A stretch of 64,000 nt of DNA from Gracilimonas sediminicola. Lineage in GTDB: Bacteria; Bacteroidota; Rhodothermia; Balneolales; Balneolaceae. The translations under genes were made by a program, and so were the position numbers. The stretch covers positions 1 to 64,000 of the forward strand of contig NZ_JANDBC010000002.1 of NCBI RefSeq assembly GCF_024320785.1. The letters run 5' to 3'. Positions 39,893 to 63,721 of this stretch are shown in pieces. The notes under the pieces are model-generated. The model saw only the letters and a program-made list of their open reading frames with translations, searched no databases and was not told the DNA's origin. Each line of letters opens with the position of its first letter. The first letter of the stretch is position 1.

Positions 39893-40933
39893 ATGATGAC
39901 TTTACGGCAAGAAATTTGTACACCAGATTTGGCAGTTAAACCCGTTAATGCATTTAAGCAGATTGATGGTTACCATTACATAACTTCGGAGCATACATTA
40001 ATGCAGATCATAAAAGACCTATTTAACGGGTATCCAGAGCCCCTTTTGGTTTTACATCACAATAACCGGAAAATCTGCTATGCCAGCCATCCTTCTGCTG
40101 CTATTGACGATCTGTTAGGGCAAAATTTTGATGAAGCCGTTACTGTAATTGACGCGAACATATCCGGCGAACCGGTTGCCTGCTTAAAAAATCAATGGCT
40201 GGGCTTTGATGAACGTGCATTTACATGGGAAGACGAAGAATACACCCTCATTGTTTTTAAGCAACGAAATGAAATACCGGATGAGGAAACCTTAGCCTCT
40301 TGGAGAAATATGATTGCTGTCATGCTTCACCGGTTCCGCTCCCCGCTTACCGGTATATCCGGCTATGTTGATATGCTTAGTGAATACAGCGATGACGAAC
40401 AGCAGGAGAAATATTTCGCCCTGATTGACAAGGGTATCAACAACCTGTATGATATGATGGATGAACTGGAAATACTTTATACCATCGACCCTAATGTGAT
40501 TGAAGATGAAGATGAATCCACCTCCCTGAAAGCTGGAAAATTAATTAAAAGCACGCTGCTTGACTACCCGGCAGACGTTCAGCAACGTATCGATATACAA
40601 TCCATTGATTCGGACTTTGAACTCAAAGGAAATCCTTCCAGCCTCAAAAACATTATTGAGCTTTTAGTTCAAAACGGTCTTCAGCATGGAGCGGATCACA
40701 CGGTTACTGTTTCTGTACCCTCCGAAAGGCTGATCCAGATTTCAAATCCCGGTCCTGCTATTCCCAAGGCTATCGCTGATAATATATTCAGCCCTTTTGT
40801 AACTGATAAAGCCAATGGATTGGGTATTGGGTTGACCCTGGCCTTGCTATACGCCCGGCAGCTTGGTGGAACTATTTTCTTGTCCAATAATGATGATGAA
40901 GAGATTACCTTCAGCCTTTGTCTGCCTGAATAG
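39893..40933 (+). CDS. Cytoplasmic sensor histidine kinase next to flgB
   Basis: 346 residues. The N-terminal ~140 residues look PAS-like (PLLVLHHNNRKICYASHPSAAIDDLLGQNF). The H-box is MLHRFRSPLTGISGYVDML near residue 145, the N-box ELLVQNGLQHG, and G-box NGLGIGLTLALLYARQLGG. No membrane segment. It is divergent from flgB and has a sigma-28-like promoter, so it likely signals within the motility regulon; its partner regulator is not adjacent. Confidence 0.85.
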   Translation: MMTLRQEICTPDLAVKPVNAFKQIDGYHYITSEHTLMQIIKDLFNGYPEPLLVLHHNNRKICYASHPSAAIDDLLGQNFDEAVTVIDANISGEPVACLKNQWLGFDERAFTWEDEEYTLIVFKQRNEIPDEETLASWRNMIAVMLHRFRSPLTGISGYVDMLSEYSDDEQQEKYFALIDKGINNLYDMMDELEILYTIDPNVIEDEDESTSLKAGKLIKSTLLDYPADVQQRIDIQSIDSDFELKGNPSSLKNIIELLVQNGLQHGADHTVTVSVPSERLIQISNPGPAIPKAIADNIFSPFVTDKANGLGIGLTLALLYARQLGGTIFLSNNDDEEITFSLCLPE

Positions 40934-41022: not shown

Positions 41023-41049
41023 TAATGTTTTCTCGAATTCAACCGATAA
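41023..41049 (+). promoter_or_regulatory. Sigma-28 promoter, best match in the window
   Basis: TAATGTTT (41023-41030), 11-bp spacer, ACCGATAA (41042-41049): 14 of 16 positions match the TAAAGTTT-N11-GCCGATAA consensus. It lies 61 bp before the ATG of the PAS/MCP-like gene. Confidence 0.75.
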
Positions 41050-41110: not shown

Positions 41111-42505
41111 ATGTTGACTGAAGAATTGACGACTGATAAGATTAAAGACCTCAAAAAACCGGTTCCTGTAAACCAGGAAAGCCCGTTTACTTTTGAGGAG
41201 TTGTTCTTATCCGTCACCGACACTAAATCTCAAATTACTTACGCCAACGAGGTCTTTGTCAATGTAAGTAAATACAGTCAGCAAGAGTTAGTAGGACAGT
41301 TACATAACATTGACCGGCACCCTGATATGCCCCGGGCAGTCTTTCATATTTTCTGGGAGTATCTGAATGCAGGAAAACCCATCGCTGCCTATTTTAAGAA
41401 TTTGGCCGGGGATGGATCTTTCTACTGGGTTTTTGCATTAACTTTCCCATGCAAAGGTGGTTTCTTATCCATCCGTTTAAGACCGGGGAGTGAGCTTTTT
41501 AACACCGTTAAAGACTGCTATGCCAAAACCCTGCAATTCGAAAAGCGAAAAGAGCAGCAGTTAGGTGATAAGCAAAAAGCCATGGAAGAGTCCCGGGCTT
41601 TTCTGTTAAATCTGCTCAAGAAAGAAGGGTTTTCAGATTACCGGGAGTTCATGTGGAATGCCCTTCAAAAAGAAATGAGCTACCGTGAAAGCATCCTTAG
41701 TGAAGGAATGTCGGAGGAGAAGAAAAAGACCGAAAAACACATCGTCCCTCCTGTTCTGGTAAAAGTTGAAACGATACTCAGTGAATTGGTACTGGGCCTG
41801 GAGAACCTGCAAAACATTCATAACGCCCTGATCGGGCACTCCGATTACATCCTGAAACTGGCTCGTTCTATCCTATTGCTTTCCCTGAATGCACAGATCA
41901 GTTCTTCCAAGCTGGATCAGGATGATAGGTCGCTATCGGTAGTAGCCGAAAAAATGGGGGAACAATCGGTGGATGGGGAAAAACGGCTTATCAATATGAA
42001 GGAGAATATCCATCATTTAAGCGACCTGATAGCCGAGCTTAATTTCGAGATCATCTCTTCTAAACTTCAGGTTGAGATGACCATTGATTTCTTCAAAGAG
42101 CTGGAAAAACAAAAATTTGAGAAAGAGATATCCCTGATTCAATCTGATGAAGTTATAAATTTGTTGTATGATGCCTTTATGCCGCGCTTAGATGTTATCA
42201 GTAAAGGAATTGGAAAAGTGCCGGCTTATCTTCGTGACCTAATGAACGGAGTGAAGGACATTGAGCGATTTTTATTGGTACTTCGATTTATACATATTAC
42301 CGGAAAGGTGGAAGTTGCCCGTATGAATGACGATGCCAACTCATTTTCAACTACCTTTCAGGATCTGGTGAATGAAATTGAAACGGCCGATTCCCACCTT
42401 GGCGAACTAAATGAAGTGGTAAGCGATAACAAAGACAGCGGACTGATGTACACCGCTTACCAGGAACGCCTTACAAACCTTATTGCAAATATTGACCGCA
42501 GATAA
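41111..42505 (+). CDS. Aer-like PAS protein with degenerate MCP-type signalling hairpin
   Basis: 464 residues. Residues ~30-130 form a PAS domain of the aerotaxis-receptor kind (ITYANEVFVNVSKYSQQELVGQLHNIDRHPDMPRAVF). The rest is long helix. Around 258-280 it reads SLNAQISSSKLDQDDRSLSVVAEKMGEQS, echoing the receptor tip [22 protein letters not shown] but with key residues changed. No membrane segment is visible. A near-consensus sigma-28 promoter places it in the flagellar regulon. It may be a soluble redox/oxygen sensor that no longer couples to CheA in the usual way. Confidence 0.8.
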   Translation: MLTEELTTDKIKDLKKPVPVNQESPFTFEELFLSVTDTKSQITYANEVFVNVSKYSQQELVGQLHNIDRHPDMPRAVFHIFWEYLNAGKPIAAYFKNLAGDGSFYWVFALTFPCKGGFLSIRLRPGSELFNTVKDCYAKTLQFEKRKEQQLGDKQKAMEESRAFLLNLLKKEGFSDYREFMWNALQKEMSYRESILSEGMSEEKKKTEKHIVPPVLVKVETILSELVLGLENLQNIHNALIGHSDYILKLARSILLLSLNAQISSSKLDQDDRSLSVVAEKMGEQSVDGEKRLINMKENIHHLSDLIAELNFEIISSKLQVEMTIDFFKELEKQKFEKEISLIQSDEVINLLYDAFMPRLDVISKGIGKVPAYLRDLMNGVKDIERFLLVLRFIHITGKVEVARMNDDANSFSTTFQDLVNEIETADSHLGELNEVVSDNKDSGLMYTAYQERLTNLIANIDRR

Positions 42506-44952: not shown

Positions 44953-46719
44953 TTAGAAATCACTGAAGTCATCATCATCCTCGAAAGGGATTAGTTCGTG
45001 AGCTTCTACTCTCTTGGAAGAACCATTTGAATGGCCGTTTGAGTGCGCTTCATGCTTCGATCCATTTCCGGATCTGCTTTGTTGACCATTGCCTTTACTG
45101 TGCCCATTATGGCCGTTTCCATTTGCAAAGCCATTTCTGATGGCTTTACTACTCGTGGCAGGCTGCTGCTCCGGGTTACGGATAAAAGATCCGTTTCCAA
45201 TACTTGCTGAACTACCTCCCCCAACAAGTCCGACCAGCTCTACAATGATGTTATTCAATTCATTGGCCTGAGAAGTCAACTCCTCAGCGGCACTGGCCGA
45301 TTCTTCGGATGAGGAAGCATTATCCTGAACCACGTTGTCCATTTCGGTCATAACCGAGGTCATTTGCTCAATGCCTACCGCCTGTTCTTTGGAAGCTGCT
45401 GAAATCTCCACTACAAGCGTACTTACACTTGAGATGCTTTGCTCTATTGCTTTCAGGTTTTCAGAAACCTCTTCGGCTACACTTGAACCACGGTCTGAAC
45501 TTGCCTGTGACTTCTGGATCAGTTCTGATGTATTCTGGGCAGCTTCCGCACTTCGCTGTGCCAGGTTACGTACTTCTTCCGCTACCACGGCAAAACCTTT
45601 TCCTGCCTCTCCGGCACGGGCTGCTTCAACAGCGGCATTCAATGCCAGCAGATTGGTCTGGAAGGCAATGTCGTCGATCGTGTTGATGATTTTGGATGTT
45701 TCCTGGGCAGAACTCTTAATCTCATTCATAGCCTGAACCATACGCTGCATGGCCTGAACCCCATTTTCAACCAACGGCTTCGACTCATTCATGGCCAGCT
45801 CGGCCTGACTTGAATTATCATCGGTTTGCTTAATTTGGGCAGCCATTTCTTCCAGAGATGATGTGGTTTCCTGAAGACTTGCAGCCTGTTCGCTGGCACT
45901 TTCAGCCAATTGCTGGCTTGCGCTCGACAGTTGCTCGGAGGACACACTAACCTGGTCGGAACCGGTTCTAAGTCTTTCGATTATGCTCTTAAGCGTACCA
46001 TTAATAGAACGGCCCACAAAGAAGCCAAATGCCATCACACCTAATACTGAGATCAAGGCTACCACGCTAATAATCCAGACATAGTTGTTTACCGTAGCCT
46101 GGGTATTGTCAGCCAGGGCTCTGGCGCCATTTTCAGCCGCCTCGTTTATAGCTACTGAACGATCCAGCAATTCCTGGTACTCAACAGCAGCATTCCTTTC
46201 CGCTTCAAATAAAGCATTACTTACTTTAGTCAGCTCCGATGGATCTGTGTTATTCTCCAGCGCCAGGGTTGCATTAAGATAAGCCTGAAGGTTACTTTCG
46301 TAGCTTTCAATAACTTCTTTAAGCCCCTGCATCTTCTCCTCCAAAACCGGGAGATCGTGGGCTTCTACATAGCTTTCAAATTCTGCATACTCTCCGTAAA
46401 TCTTCTCAAATCTCGAGAGTGCCGATTCCATATAGGAAACGTCGTTTGTGTTTGTAAACTGGAGGTGTTCGTAGCCAGCCTTGCGTACAGCTGTTTCAAA
46501 TGCCGCAGCGGTTCCCCACTCATTAAACGATACCTCAGATAAAGAGGTGGTGTTGTTTTGTATTTTATTGAGTGAGAATAGTGCGATAGCACCAAGAATC
46601 AGTGTTACCACAGTTGCAGATGCTGTAAGGAAAAATATTCTTTTCCCTATGGTCCAGCTACCTTCCGCATCACTTATACCCTGACTTACATTATTCAGAT
46701 AGTTATTAATCGATGACAT
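44953..46719 (-). CDS. Methyl-accepting chemotaxis protein
   Basis: 588 residues. TM1 ~27-50, a helical four-helix-bundle-type sensor, TM2 ~212-235, then the cytoplasmic signalling domain with the conserved tip [38 protein letters not shown]. No clear HAMP. After the coiled coil a Gly/Asn/Ser/His-rich linker leads to a C-terminal tail ending DDDDFSDF. It follows cheW by 33 bp. Confidence 0.96.
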
Positions 46720-46752: not shown

Positions 46753-47265
46753 TTAAGCTGCGGTGTCGTTTGTCTCCAATACCTCTTCGGGCACATCAAA
46801 TAGTACTTTGTGGATATCAACGATCATTTTTACAGACTCCTTAACCTTACCAATACCCGCCAGGTATTCGCTGTTTCCCTTCACTCCAAATGATGGGACT
46901 TCTTCAATTTGATTGTCTTTGATATCAGCTACTTCCGATACCTTATCTACCAGTACGCCCATCAGGTAATCACCTTCCTGAACTACAATCACGCAGGTCT
47001 CGTCGGTGTCTTCAACTGCCGGCAATTCAAAGCGAAGCCGCAGGTTCATTACCGGTACAATTTTACCTCTCAGGTTTAACACCCCGCGAATGTACTTCGG
47101 CATCTTGGGAACGGGGGTAATCGGCATCAGGCCAATGATTTCCTGTACTTTTAATATTTCGATTGCGTACTCCTCTTTACCTAAAAAGAAGCTGAGAAAT
47201 TTTCCGCCAGCTATTATATGGCCGATTTCTTCGGCCTCTTTTTCTTTAACCAGTGTTTCTTCCAT
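46753..47265 (-). CDS. cheW: CheW, receptor-kinase coupling protein
   Basis: 170 residues. CheW fold: FFLGKEEYAIEILKVQEIIGLMPITPVPKMPKYIRGVLNLRGKIVPVMNLRLRF, then CVIVVQEGDYLMGVLVDKVSEVADI. It bridges MCPs and CheA at the array. A sigma-28-type promoter lies ~105 bp upstream. First gene of the cheW-MCP-orf134-RR-HK group. Confidence 0.97.
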   Translation of the reverse strand: MEETLVKEKEAEEIGHIIAGGKFLSFFLGKEEYAIEILKVQEIIGLMPITPVPKMPKYIRGVLNLRGKIVPVMNLRLRFELPAVEDTDETCVIVVQEGDYLMGVLVDKVSEVADIKDNQIEEVPSFGVKGNSEYLAGIGKVKESVKMIVDIHKVLFDVPEEVLETNDTAA

Positions 47266-47746: not shown

Positions 47747-48178
47747 TTAGCTGTTGATCTTGAAGCTTACCGGAAGGGTGTAGTATACCTTAACGGGTTT
47801 TCCTTGTAATTTACCCGGTGTAAACTTCACTTTTTTAATGCCCTCTACTGCAGCTTGCCCACAGCCGGCGCCGATATCTTTAATCACTTCCGGGTTTTTA
47901 ACATCACCGTTTTCATCAACCACAAATTTCACAAAAACCCGGCCTTCTACACGTCCGGCTATGGCAGCCCGGGGATATTCAATATTCTTATATACCTCTT
48001 TGATACCTCCATCAATTTCCGGCATCTGGTCCACTACATCATAAATTGTAACTGAGTCGTCAGCAACAACTTCAAAAGCCGGGTTGTCAACAAAATCTGG
48101 TACTGTTTCAGCGTTTGCACTCGTTACCACCAAAAGGGCAATTACAAAAGAAAAAAGTTGTATTGATTTCTTAAGCAT
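47747..48178 (-). CDS. Secreted protein with TonB C-terminal domain
   Basis: 143 residues. A cleavable signal (SFVIALLVVTSANA-ET) followed by a TonB_C domain (IEYPRAAIAGRVEGRVFVKFVVDENGDVKNPEVIKDIGAGCGQAAVEGIKKVKFTPGKLQGKPVKVYYTLPVSF). It lacks the inner-membrane anchor and Pro-rich spacer of classical TonB, so it is a free periplasmic TonB-C protein of the Bacteroidota kind. A perfect GCCGATAA box lies 60 bp upstream. Confidence 0.88.
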   Translation of the reverse strand: MLKKSIQLFSFVIALLVVTSANAETVPDFVDNPAFEVVADDSVTIYDVVDQMPEIDGGIKEVYKNIEYPRAAIAGRVEGRVFVKFVVDENGDVKNPEVIKDIGAGCGQAAVEGIKKVKFTPGKLQGKPVKVYYTLPVSFKINS

Positions 48179-53051: not shown

Positions 53052-54764
53052 TCAGAAATCACTAAAGTCATCGTGACTGAAACCATTCAGGGCGGGTTCT
53101 CTGTGAAGATTCTGCTTTGCCCTTTCTGATTTTCCATCCCCATTAAAGTGGCGGATACCATTCACTGTATGTCCATTTGAAGATACAGAAGGGGTGACTT
53201 TTTGAGCCAGGGGAATGTGCTTTGCAACTCGTTGAAGTACACCTTCCTGTTTGGGCATATGGTGAGCTCCACTTCCTCCTACCATTTCCATCAGTTCATT
53301 TACAATGTATTGAAGCTCCGCAGCCTGAGAGGAAAGTTCTTCTGCCGCACTGGCCGACTCTTCAGACGATGAGGCATTGGTTTGAACCACATTATCCATT
53401 TCAGACATAACGGAACTCATCTGTTGAATCCCAACAGCCTGTTCTTTGGAAGCAGCGGAAATTTCTACAACCAGAGAACTCACTTCATTAATGCTTTCTT
53501 CAATCTTTTGAAGGTTATCGGAAACCTCTTTCGACACTCCATTGCCCCGGTCAGAACTGGACTGGGATTTTTGTATCAGCTCCGAAGTATTCTTGGCTGC
53601 TTCTGCGCTTCGCTGTGCCAGGTTTCTCACTTCCTCAGCTACAACGGCAAAACCTTTACCGGCTTCTCCGGCACGGGCAGCCTCAACGGCAGCATTCAGC
53701 GCCAGTAAGTTTGTTTGGAAGGCAATGTCATCTATCGTATTGATGATCTTGGATGTTTCTTTTGAAGAATGGCTGATTTCCTTCATGGCCTCAGTCATCC
53801 GTTTCATCGCTTCCACCCCACTTTCAACCAGTGGTTTAGATTCTTTCATAGCCACTTCCACCTCCGCAGAGTTTTCCGCATTCAGTTTTATTTGGCTCGA
53901 CATTTCTTCAAGTGAGGACGTCGTTTCCTGAACACTTGCTGCCTGCTCGCTTGCACTTTCGGCTAAATCCTGGCTGGCTCCTGAAAGCTGAACCGATGAG
54001 GCATTAACTTGCTCGGAACCACTTTTAAGTCGGTCTATAATCGATTTCAAAGTTTTGTTTACCGACCGGGTTATAAAGTATCCCAACAATCCAGCCAGAG
54101 TTACACCGAACACCAACCCGATAATGGCAAAAGTACCTATGATGTTATTCTGTGCAGTGGCACTTTTAACCTCAGAATCTACAATGGCTTTGTTCAGTTC
54201 TACAATCCCTTGTAATCTTTCCTTAGCAATGCGATAAGACTCCATGTTATAATTCATGAACTGATCCCTTAAATTGGAAAGTATCTCGTCAGCACGTTGT
54301 GAGTCTTCCGAAATCAGCAAGTATTCTCTTGATATTTTTCTAAACTCATCCTGATGGTTTTTCCAGGTTTGATAGGATTTTAAGAATGCTTGCCATTCTA
54401 AGGCTTCTTGTTGAGTTTGTGGTAATGGCTCATAGATGGCTTTCGCTTCGGTTAGCTTATCCCAGTAATGATCTACAGTCTCTACGGCTTCTTTACGTTC
54501 CTTATCCGATAAAGCCGGATTCTGCAAGGCCTCTTCTTTACTTCTGATTTCGGCCATAGCCAAATTCATATCTTGTAACGACTGAATACTGGGAAGCCTC
54601 ACTTTCCCGATTTCTTCTACCGTTTTCTTATTACTTGTAGCTGCATACTGCCCTAATGATCCAAGAATCAGTGAAATCAGGGTGATTCCGGTAAAGGCTG
54701 CTGTTAACTTCTTTCCAATTGTCCACTTTTTGTTATTTGCTGAAACGTTAATTGTACTGCTCAT
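53052..54764 (-). CDS. Methyl-accepting chemotaxis protein
   Basis: 570 residues from ATG 54764 (AAAGGT seven bases upstream). TM1 ~20-42, helical periplasmic sensor with [20 protein letters not shown]2 ~200-225, signalling domain with the invariant tip [38 protein letters not shown]. Variable linker, then a C-terminal tail HDDFSDF. Very similar to the MCP at 44953-46719 over the cytoplasmic half, suggesting duplication with a different sensor. The frame extends upstream to 54905 but without family support. Confidence 0.95.
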
Positions 54765-54937
54765 TAGTTTACCTTTTGCAAGGTGGTTTAGTTTGAAATT
54801 GTAAAAGCCGGAAGCCTCAGCTTTTTTTAGCTGGATATAAAAGCACCCCGGCTTTAGATAGTTGAAACCGTTAAAGCCGACATTATTTAACGCAAGCAAT
54901 AACAACCTGCGACATCACCAGCTTTGGTTTTGAAGAG

Positions 54938-61195: not shown

Positions 61196-63721
61196 TCAGG
61201 CTGCAGATTCCATCAGTGCGGCCGTATCCAGGATCAGACCAACACGTCCGTCCCCAAGAATGGCTCCCCCCGATATATGCGACATTTTTGTGAGCATATG
61301 TATCGATTTGCCCACCAGTTGCTGTTGCCCGATCACCTCATCTACCAGTAGGGCATACCGGCGATTGTTATTCTTGATGATCAACAGGGTGCCTTCCAGT
61401 AAACTTTCTTTGGCTCCGTTAATCTCAAACTGCTCATGCAGCCTTATCACAGGAACCGATTGCCCTCTGAAATTCACCTGCTCCGAGTTGCCCATCATGG
61501 TAAACATATCCGATTCTTTGGCGCGGAAGGTCATGTCTATGTTTATAGTCGGAACGATAAATCGCTGCGTACCTACCCGAACCAGCATCCCATCAGTAAT
61601 AGCCAGTGTGAAAGGCAGTTCAATGGTGATGGTTGTTCCCTTACCTAATTCTGAACTCACATCTACCTTGCCTTGCAGCTGCTCGATAGAACGGCGGACT
61701 ACATCCATCCCCACACCTCGGCCCGATAAATCGGTAACTTTCTCAGCCGATGAAAAACCGGGCAGGAATATGAGATTGTATATTTCTTTCTCGGTGAGTT
61801 TTTTCTCCGGGTCAACCAAGCCTTTTTCTATGGCTTTGTTAAGAATCACATCTTTGTTGATGCCACGGCCATCATCCTTAATTTCGATAACTACTTTACC
61901 ACCCTCCTGCGATGCAGAAAGTGAAAGTTCGGCGTTGGCCCCTTTTCCGCTTTTAAGTCGCTCTTCCGGCTCTTCAATTCCATGGTCCAAAGAGTTTCGC
62001 AGCATGTGGATCAGCGGCTCATTGATTACATCCACCATATTACGATCAATCTCGGTGTCTTCCCCAAAGGTTGAGAACTTCACCTGCTTACCGGCTTTTC
62101 TGGATAGATCCCGAACCAGGCGGTTCATTTTGTGGAATGTCGCTTTAAGCGGTACCATACGCAGGGTTAAACTGGTATCCTGTAGCTCCCGAAGTATTTT
62201 GGTAGCGTGATTTACTTTTTTCTGAAGTTCTGAATCTTTGGGGATAGCTTTATCCTGGGCTACTACAGAATGTGCAATAACCAGCTCTCCAACCATATCG
62301 ATAAGGCGATCGAGACGACTTACACTTACCCGTACCGATGATTCTGATTCAGATTTTGAATTGATCTTATCTGTAGCATCGGAATCACCTGAATCGGTTA
62401 CAGCCTCTACAACCGGGTTAGCTACCGGAGCAGCTGCCTGCTTTCCCCTAATTTCTTCGAGGGCTTGGGCCGGCTCTTTTCCTTCTTCTGAAATAGAATG
62501 CAGAACAGAAATCATGTTGTCGTACTGCCCCGGTTTATGAAGCGGATCGCCCCCTTCAGCAACCTCTACTACTTTCAGCATTTTATTCAGAATATCGATC
62601 GACTCAAAGTTGATATCGGCGCATGCCCGGTCGAAGGGTAAATCACCTTCCCGCACCATACTTAGCAAGGTTTCTACAAAGTGGGTGAACTCCGAAATCG
62701 GGTCGAGCCCCATAAAAGCGGAAGTCCCTTTGATGGTATGGAAAGCCCGGAATACGGTATTGATCAACTCTTCATCATCCGGAGATTCCTCCAGCTCCAG
62801 CAGTGCACTTTCGGCCATTTCAATCAGTTCGGAGCACTCAGTAATGAACTCTCCAACCAGTGCCATTTCTATATCTTCGGGGATATGAAATACTTCTGAG
62901 GAAACAGACTCTTTCTTCTCTGATTCTTCTTGAATTACTGCTTCATCAGCAGGCTCCTCCGCTGTAGTTTGCTCTTCTTCCTCCGGGCTCTCAGTATCGA
63001 CAAGCTCATCAGTATTTTCGGGATTATCCCATTCCCTCTGAGCCTCAATTTCAATCGCTTGCTCCGTTTTATCCGAAACAATACCCAGCCATCCTTTTGC
63101 TCCACCGCTGGCTTCCACTTCGGCCATCGCCTCCTTAAGCGGAGAAGCAATAGCTTCTTCCTCATGCTTAACGATGTAGGAAACCAACTCATCCAGTTTC
63201 TGAAGGTCTTCGCCGGTAACCGATTCCTCTTCGAGAGTGATCAGGAAGCCGGCCAGGTCATTCAGCGTATATTCTTTTACCGATTTTTCCTCTTCTGTAC
63301 TTTGCTTCGACTCCCCGTTCTTTTTGATTTCCTCGACTTTTTCTTCATCCAGATCAATTACGGTGTCGGCCGATTCTGAGCCTCCCTTCAATGCTTTCTC
63401 CAATTCGTCATAGGCCTTTTCAAAGTCTTCTACTTTGATATCACCTTCCTCAATCACATACTCCCTGATAGTATTAATAGCTTGCATCGTGGCTGTTTTA
63501 ACCATGATGAAGTAGTCATCTTTTTCGTAGAGATGTTTGATTCCCTTCCACGATAAATCAATCAGTTTCTGAAATTGCCCAAAATTGTTTTCAACGTTAT
63601 TGGTAACCTCCTCAAATTTGGCACCGGCTACGGCTACATTTTCCCGGTCGGTTGGCCACACATCTGCCAGCAAACGGATAATGGATTCGAGGTCTTTGAT
63701 AAGTTGGTCTTTATTGCTCAT
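61196..63721 (-). CDS. cheA: CheA histidine kinase with long N-terminal extension
   Basis: 841 residues. The phospho-accepting P1 domain starts only near residue 285, with H328 in AFHTIKGTSAFMG. Dimerisation P3 (IDMVGELVIAHSVV), kinase P4 (HMLRNSLDHGIE, DDGRGIN, GRGVGMDVVR) and CheW-like P5 follow. The first ~280 residues are not P1: a helical part (1-110), acidic linkers, and a second helical block (~150-205). It phosphorylates the CheY and CheB proteins of this operon. Confidence 0.96.
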   Translation of the reverse strand: MSNKDQLIKDLESIIRLLADVWPTDRENVAVAGAKFEEVTNNVENNFGQFQKLIDLSWKGIKHLYEKDDYFIMVKTATMQAINTIREYVIEEGDIKVEDFEKAYDELEKALKGGSESADTVIDLDEEKVEEIKKNGESKQSTEEEKSVKEYTLNDLAGFLITLEEESVTGEDLQKLDELVSYIVKHEEEAIASPLKEAMAEVEASGGAKGWLGIVSDKTEQAIEIEAQREWDNPENTDELVDTESPEEEEQTTAEEPADEAVIQEESEKKESVSSEVFHIPEDIEMALVGEFITECSELIEMAESALLELEESPDDEELINTVFRAFHTIKGTSAFMGLDPISEFTHFVETLLSMVREGDLPFDRACADINFESIDILNKMLKVVEVAEGGDPLHKPGQYDNMISVLHSISEEGKEPAQALEEIRGKQAAAPVANPVVEAVTDSGDSDATDKINSKSESESSVRVSVSRLDRLIDMVGELVIAHSVVAQDKAIPKDSELQKKVNHATKILRELQDTSLTLRMVPLKATFHKMNRLVRDLSRKAGKQVKFSTFGEDTEIDRNMVDVINEPLIHMLRNSLDHGIEEPEERLKSGKGANAELSLSASQEGGKVVIEIKDDGRGINKDVILNKAIEKGLVDPEKKLTEKEIYNLIFLPGFSSAEKVTDLSGRGVGMDVVRRSIEQLQGKVDVSSELGKGTTITIELPFTLAITDGMLVRVGTQRFIVPTINIDMTFRAKESDMFTMMGNSEQVNFRGQSVPVIRLHEQFEINGAKESLLEGTLLIIKNNNRRYALLVDEVIGQQQLVGKSIHMLTKMSHISGGAILGDGRVGLILDTAALMESAA

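What the first reader, a model, noticed from the sequence alone, without database searches (positions are those of the whole stretch)
41111..42505. Aer-like PAS protein with a broken chemoreceptor tip
The PAS domain is Aer-like and the promoter is sigma-28, but the receptor hairpin reads SLNAQISSSKLDQDDRSLSVVAEKMGEQ, with most CheA/CheW-contact residues changed. Helices continue for ~170 residues beyond. This may be a decoupled or new-partner signalling protein.
Basis: partly seen in the sequence, partly recalled or inferred. Interest (0 to 1): 0.6.

Follow-up and report, generated by a model that had tools for sequence, protein, structure and literature searches.

The report
Single-chain aerotaxis receptor with two tips
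This gene encodes a soluble, redox-sensor-like protein whose tail is not one broken chemoreceptor tip but two diverged tips fused in one chain, apparently a natural one-piece version of the two-subunit bundle that receptors normally use to control swimming; the same design occurs in at least seven bacterial phyla.

Summary
The gene at 41111-42505 (464 aa) is real, intact and conserved, with an Aer-type PAS domain and a sigma-28-like promoter. An ungapped scan with an MCP-tip profile picks out exactly two windows, centred on N260 and T397; family profiles match MCPs, and genome searches with the tail alone reach MCPs after the family itself. AlphaFold models of two distant members show a single-chain up-down-up-down four-helix bundle with both U-turns at one end: the shape of an MCP dimer tip made from one chain. 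Conserved tip residues are split: hairpin 1 keeps Tsr N381, hairpin 2 keeps E385 and R388 (and mostly F396). Carriers have chemotaxis genes (14 of 15 in the order, 37 of 37 tip-bearing genomes elsewhere) and some copies lie in che operons, so 'decoupled' is not supported. Best reading: a soluble, probably FAD-binding redox receptor that joins CheA/CheW arrays as an asymmetric pseudo-dimer. Engineered single-chain Tsr works and natural single-chain MCP domains were noted before, so this is a new variant of a known kind. Binding and function are inferred.

The parts
41111..42505 (+). gene: 464-aa soluble PAS plus single-chain double-hairpin receptor
41023..41049 (+). sigma-28-like promoter TAATGTTT-N11-ACCGATAA
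   Evidence: similar sites in relatives
41174..41488 (+). Aer-type PAS domain (residues 22-126), RHPDMP motif and W106 kept
41492..41707 (+). linker helices (residues 128-199) with conserved GFxxYxxFMxxALxxEMxxRE motif, no Pfam family
41750..42115 (+). hairpin 1 (helices 214-266 and 270-335)
41846..41980 (+). tip 1 (residues 246-290): N260 aligns with Tsr N381; E385 equivalent is S264
42134..42499 (+). hairpin 2 (helices 342-403 and 410-463)
42260..42394 (+). tip 2 (residues 384-428): E401, R404, F412 align with Tsr E385, R388, F396; N381 equivalent is T397
39893..40933 (+). HisKA-HATPase kinase gene directly upstream, kept beside this gene in 7 other Balneolota genomes (context)
44953..46719 (-). 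canonical MCP (context; one of only two in the genome)
46753..47265 (-). CheW (context)
53052..54905 (-). second canonical MCP (context)
61196..63721 (-). CheA (context)

Best explanation
A soluble Aer-type energy-taxis receptor whose signalling part is a single-chain pseudo-dimer. SHOWN by sequence and models: an Aer-like PAS, a short helical linker, then two tandem hairpins each related to the MCP tip, predicted to pack into one up-down-up-down four-helix bundle with both U-turns at the same end, as in an MCP dimer tip but in one polypeptide and without room for methylation helices. SHOWN: the conserved tip residues are split between the hairpins, and the gene goes with chemotaxis machinery. 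INFERRED: the PAS binds FAD and reads redox state; the linker passes this to the bundle; the bundle enters mixed trimers with ordinary MCPs, hairpin 2 (E/R/F, the ionic-lock and stacking residues) facing the trimer axis and hairpin 1 (N) facing CheW/CheA, and so modulates CheA. Adaptation would come from neighbouring MCPs.
For: Two tips: an MCP-tip matrix scanned over residues 154-438 of the family ranks N260 first (z 6.5) and T397 second (z 4.9), third z 2.5; in the window protein alone these are also the top two, the second-best score being reached in 0.05% of shuffles. hhalign in ten members from other phyla: hairpin 1 vs MCP 80 (reversed control 17), hairpin 2 vs MCP 42 (24); hairpin 1 vs hairpin 2 39.6 in the whole family against 27.1 for the best of 40 block shuffles. 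Campylobacterales member L032 passes the MCPsignal cut-off (42.1 vs 34.6 bits); 7 of 41 members hit MCPsignal at E <= 1. A tail-only profile searched through 97 + 14 genomes finds the family, then a lower tier which in G000 is its MCP at 53 kb. AlphaFold: pLDDT 91.5, pTM 0.88 for the window protein; pLDDT 90, pTM 0.87 for L031 with no Balneolota sequence in the alignment; both bundles superpose on single-chain four-helix maquettes over about 194 residues at 3.0-3.9 A. Split residues. Linkage: carriers with CheW 14/15 against 24/82 non-carriers, Fisher p 4e-6, not corrected for descent; 37/37 tip-bearing carriers elsewhere; operon response regulator-FAMILY-CheA-CheW-MCP in L054 and CheV-response regulator-MCP-FAMILY in L030, same gene order in L032; flagellar/che synteny in 7 other Balneolota genomes. 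Engineered single-chain Tsr signals (PMC4692393); E385-R388' lock and F396 stacking at the trimer axis (PMC8144572); inner and outer subunits have different surroundings (PMC4692393).
Against: No binding or behavioural data. Hairpin 2 is only weakly seen by single-sequence HMMs (14 bits in L031, none in the window). Balneolota-only and alphaproteobacteria-only profiles are not significant alone against MCPs. Contact residues are partly lost in each hairpin, so array entry may be weak or absent. Oligomeric state was not predicted. Matches to four-helix bundles are partly generic, and no MCP chain appeared among the listed structural rows.
Confidence: 0.66

Rival explanations
1. Array cap or antagonist: the double-hairpin bundle still binds CheW, CheA or MCP tips but, lacking a full set of contact residues, it blocks trimer or array growth or holds CheA inactive, under redox control by the PAS domain.
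For: Same homology, co-occurrence and operon evidence; neither hairpin has the complete N/E/R/F set; bundle too short for adaptation helices.
Against: Conservation of E401/R404/F412 in hairpin 2 fits productive trimer contacts; sigma-28-type control fits a routine receptor.
Confidence: 0.17
2. One reading: a receptor-derived protein decoupled from CheA/CheW that talks to another partner, for example the histidine kinase encoded just upstream.
For: Kinase gene 39893-40933 stays adjacent in 7 other Balneolota genomes; tip residues changed; three actinobacterial PAS-helical relatives live in genomes without CheW.
Against: Tip-bearing carriers have CheW almost without exception; one che-operon copy overlaps cheA itself (that locus also has a HisKA kinase three genes upstream); the actinobacterial forms have lost the tip motif.
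Confidence: 0.1
3. A decaying receptor remnant, or chance resemblance of two coiled-coil hairpins to the MCP tip.
For: The window protein gives no MCPsignal hit.
Against: Purifying selection (bundle dN 0.012, dS 0.305), conservation across phyla, exact ungapped register of both tips with controls, tail-only genome search reaching MCPs.
Confidence: 0.04

Closest known systems
E. coli Aer (FAD-PAS aerotaxis receptor; PDB 8dik)
   Same: PAS domain by sequence and fold; redox input likely the same
   Different: Aer has a HAMP domain, a membrane anchor and one canonical hairpin per chain that dimerises; here no HAMP hit and two diverged hairpins in one chain
Engineered single-chain Tsr~Tsr (PMC4692393) and soluble single-chain Tar constructs cited there
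   Same: Two signalling hairpins joined in one chain to make a covalent dimer equivalent
   Different: Man-made, canonical halves; here natural, short, asymmetric, with an Aer-type PAS
[quoted passage not shown]
   Same: Soluble protein with two MCP signalling units in one chain
DosM (double signalling domain receptor of F9 arrays; PMC9321776)
   Same: Two signalling domains in tandem in one protein
   Different: 98% of DosM lack a sensory domain and DosM stabilises two-layered arrays; here a PAS is present and the model puts both tips at the same end of one short bundle
CetA/CetB bipartite energy-taxis receptor (PMC13401364)
   Same: Soluble Aer-like PAS protein tied to chemotaxis
   Different: CetB is PAS only and works through the hairpin of CetA; here the hairpins are in the same chain

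Membership tests
MCP signalling domain (PF00015) | Match above the curated MCPsignal cut-off | tested here: not met
   Window protein: no hit at E <= 10; relative L032 does pass, 42.1 vs 34.6 bits
MCP signalling domain (PF00015) | Homology to the MCP tip hairpin at profile level | tested here: met
MCP signalling domain (PF00015) | N381, E385, R388 and F396 (Tsr numbers) together in one hairpin | tested here: not met
   Split: N in hairpin 1; E, R and F in hairpin 2
MCP signalling domain (PF00015) | Methylation (adaptation) helices flanking the tip | tested here: not met
   Bundle arms are only 53-66 residues and the chain ends there
MCP signalling domain (PF00015) | Binds CheA/CheW and forms trimers of dimers | not testable with these tools
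   no binding data
Aer-type aerotaxis receptor | Aer-like PAS domain | tested here: met
Aer-type aerotaxis receptor | FAD bound to the PAS | not testable with these tools
   Fold and sequence kept; binding not shown
Aer-type aerotaxis receptor | HAMP domain after the PAS | tested here: not met
   No HAMP hit; helices 128-199 of another kind
Single-chain chemoreceptor (two hairpins, one chain, dimer-like bundle) | Two tip hairpins in one chain packing as one bundle with both turns at one end | tested here: met
   Sequence; models of two distant members: (predicted, not solved)
DosM | Two signalling domains, no sensory domain, spanning two array layers | tested here: not met
   PAS present; compact bundle with a loop at 336-341 between the hairpins
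CetB | PAS-only protein | tested here: not met
   464 aa with a double hairpin

The most novel reading that the evidence does not exclude
A widespread natural family of asymmetric single-chain chemoreceptors in which fusion let the two halves of the dimer specialise: hairpin 2 as the trimer-axis subunit (E385/R388/F396 kept) and hairpin 1 as the outer, CheA/CheW-facing subunit (N381 kept), separating two roles that every ordinary receptor must carry in one sequence.
Probability: 0.42. Interest if true: 0.78.

Novelty: new variant of a known kind. Interest (0 to 1): 0.64.

Why it matters
In MCP trimers of dimers the two identical subunits sit in different places, and ordinary mutants cannot tell the two roles apart; single-chain Tsr was built for that purpose (PMC4692393). 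This family appears to be evolution's own version, already divided at key residues, in at least seven phyla, short, soluble and linked to a known redox sensor. It would make the inner/outer question testable by comparing natural sequences, it would add a hidden class of likely aerotaxis receptor that the MCPsignal model mostly misses, and receptor counts for these bacteria would need revising (this Gracilimonas-like genome has two canonical MCPs plus this one).

Tried and rejected
Single broken tip with unrelated helices beyond: rejected by the second tip. Decaying gene: rejected by selection and conservation. Ordinary Aer: no MCPsignal or HAMP hit. DosM-like extended rod: the models break at 336-341 and fold back, and superpose on single-chain up-down-up-down bundles. 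Foldseek and VIA against the PDB did not list an MCP chain for the bundle; MCP chains hold one hairpin each and the lists are dominated by PAS domains and generic bundles, so this says nothing either way. MCPsignal on hairpin 2 alone: only L031 gave a weak hit, so hairpin 2 rests on profile comparison, register and structure. Balneolota-only and alphaproteobacteria-only profiles were too shallow to match MCPs. A first extraction script misread minus-strand loci and was replaced. Literature searches for a natural pseudo-dimeric receptor with an Aer PAS found none; the library holds only open-licence papers. Two cited papers, on natural single-chain MCPs and on DosM, were not held.

Full report
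OBSERVATION. The ORF at 41111-42505 is present as described, 464 aa, intact. Pfam sees only PAS in the window protein (PAS_3 1.5e-8); MCPsignal is not reported even at E 10, while the canonical MCP next door scores 1e-42. The PAS is closest to E. coli Aer (8dik, E 1e-21; 1.3 A over 122 residues in the model). A sigma-28-like promoter with exact N11 spacing and 14 of 16 consensus bases ends about 60 bases upstream of the start codon; comparable sites lie upstream of several relatives, most of them 60-95 bases from the start codon.

FAMILY. Full-length relatives (43-92% identity) occur in the genus, family and order, and a first comparison with plasmids gave the same architecture in Rhizobiales and Rhodobacterales at 25-31%. 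One scan of 84,980 species genomes returned full-length members in Planctomycetota, Latescibacterota, Campylobacterota, Verrucomicrobiota, Thermoleophilia and Alphaproteobacteria, so with the window's own phylum at least seven phyla (read from the record titles). Gracilimonas mengyeensis (L027) is the same genome as G002, which is of the window's genus.

TWO TIPS, NOT ONE. Profile comparison of the C-terminal region with MCP signalling domains gave two alternative alignments, one placing the reported hairpin and one placing a second stretch, around RFIHITGKVEVARMNDDANSF, on the MCP tip. For ten members from other phyla the best alignment scores 83.7, against 49.3 for the best of 20 heptad-block shuffles and 23.7 for the reversed MCP profile; the second alignment scores 52.3. 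Split into two, hairpin 1 matches MCPs with score 80 (reversed 17), hairpin 2 with 42 (reversed 24), and in the whole family the hairpins match each other (39.6 against at most 27.1 in 40 shuffles) in the same register, N260 against T397. The simplest test is an ungapped scan of an MCP-tip scoring matrix along the family: the best two of all positions are N260 (z 6.5) and T397 (z 4.9), the next is 2.5. The same two lead in the window protein alone, and a second window this good arises in 0.05% of shuffles; per sequence the two tips are the best two windows in 14 of 16 Balneolota, 6 of 10 other and 15 of 31 alphaproteobacterial members, so the signal is weaker in the last group. Independent of my profiles, Pfam's MCPsignal hits 7 of 41 members, L032 above the curated cut-off over hairpin 1, and L031 weakly over hairpin 2. 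A search of 97 related genomes with the tail alone (no PAS) finds the family first and then a lower tier of open frames; in the window's own genome this is the MCP at 53 kb, and in the L054 genome one is the MCP of its che operon. I did not annotate every lower-tier hit.

STRUCTURE. AlphaFold gives pLDDT 91.5 and pTM 0.88: helices 214-266, 270-335, 342-403 and 410-463, with turns at 267-269 and 404-409 and a loop at 336-341. A second model, for the Thermoleophilia member with no Balneolota sequence in the alignment, has the same plan. Both superpose over about 194 residues on single-chain four-helix maquettes (Z 15-17, rmsd 3.0-3.9 A or slightly more). Such Z values are partly generic for bundles, but they show the topology: up-down-up-down, both turns at the same end. 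An MCP tip is a four-helix bundle made of two chains; this looks like the same bundle made of one. The arms are 53-66 residues, which leaves no room for methylation helices.

ASYMMETRY. With Tsr numbering by ungapped alignment, N381 is kept in hairpin 1 in 100/90/100% of Balneolota/other/alphaproteobacterial members, while E385 is replaced in most (kept in 30% of 'other'). Hairpin 2 keeps E385 in 100/80/100%, R388 in 100/50/81%, and F396 in 94/80/0% (alphaproteobacteria have L), and mostly lacks N381 (N in 40% of 'other'). E385-R388' and F396 stacking are contacts between dimers at the trimer axis (homologous residues, PMC8144572), N381 is also called a trimer-contact residue (PMC8466855), and the outer subunit faces CheA and CheW (PMC4692393). 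The inner/outer assignment of the hairpins is my inference.

CONTEXT. In the window the gene lies between the flagellar basal-body operon and the che cluster (MCP, CheW, MCP, CheA). In seven other Balneolota genomes it keeps its place beside the upstream kinase and the flagellar operon; other copies stand alone. Of 97 relatives, 14 of 15 full-length carriers have CheW, against 24 of 82 others (p 4e-6, not corrected for descent); the exception, G042, is an 82% complete assembly with seven tail-profile matches. Elsewhere 37 of 40 carriers have CheW, and the three without it are actinobacterial proteins without the tip motif. In L054 the gene sits in an operon response regulator - family - CheA - CheW - MCP, overlapping cheA by 4 bases; in L030 it follows CheV - response regulator - MCP, and L032 has the same gene order.

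MECHANISM. Most likely a soluble redox receptor whose single-chain pseudo-dimeric bundle joins chemoreceptor arrays; shown and inferred steps are marked in the best explanation. The main rival is a cap or antagonist of arrays. The decoupled/new-partner reading is not supported.

NOVELTY. Single-chain receptors have been engineered and work (PMC4692393), and that paper says soluble natural single-chain MCP domains exist in R. [quoted passage not shown] DosM has two signalling domains but no sensor in 98% of cases (PMC9321776). A 2026 review of aerotaxis receptors does not list this architecture among its section headings (I did not read it in full). I therefore call it a new variant of a known kind: Aer-type PAS, short asymmetric double hairpin, wide distribution, mostly invisible to MCPsignal.

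Noticed in passing
41190-41475: The PAS core of the window gene is far more diverged from its nearest congener (L002) than the rest of the gene, also at silent sites (dS 1.66 in PAS against 0.31 in the bundle), while L002 and L003 agree with each other there; this looks like replacement of the PAS segment by recombination.
   Followed up: partly
L057, L065, L070: Actinobacterial proteins (Nocardia, Actinomyces, Propionibacteriaceae) keep the Aer-like PAS and the linker helix but have no tip motif, and their genomes have no CheW: a possible non-chemotactic offshoot.
   Followed up: partly
39893-40933: A HisKA-type kinase of unknown role stays beside the receptor gene in seven other Balneolota genomes although it diverges much faster (33-85% identity).
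   Followed up: partly
47747-48178: A TonB C-terminal-domain protein lies inside the che gene cluster, and relatives of it lie in the che clusters of other Balneolota.
   Followed up: no
61196-63721: CheA has about 285 residues before its first Hpt hit with no Pfam family.
   Followed up: no
L119 (G010 contig 40), and G103 contig 27 (L033): Two copies of the receptor gene in tandem; the G010 copies have long N-terminal extensions.
   Followed up: no
41492-41707: The linker helix motif GFxxYxxFMxxALxxEMxxRE is conserved across the phyla of the family and has no Pfam name; it may be the PAS-to-bundle relay.
   Followed up: no
L064, L068, L071, L075 and similar loci: Many PAS-only (about 170 aa) Aer-like genes with a canonical MCP nearby, as in CetB/CetA pairs.
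   Followed up: no
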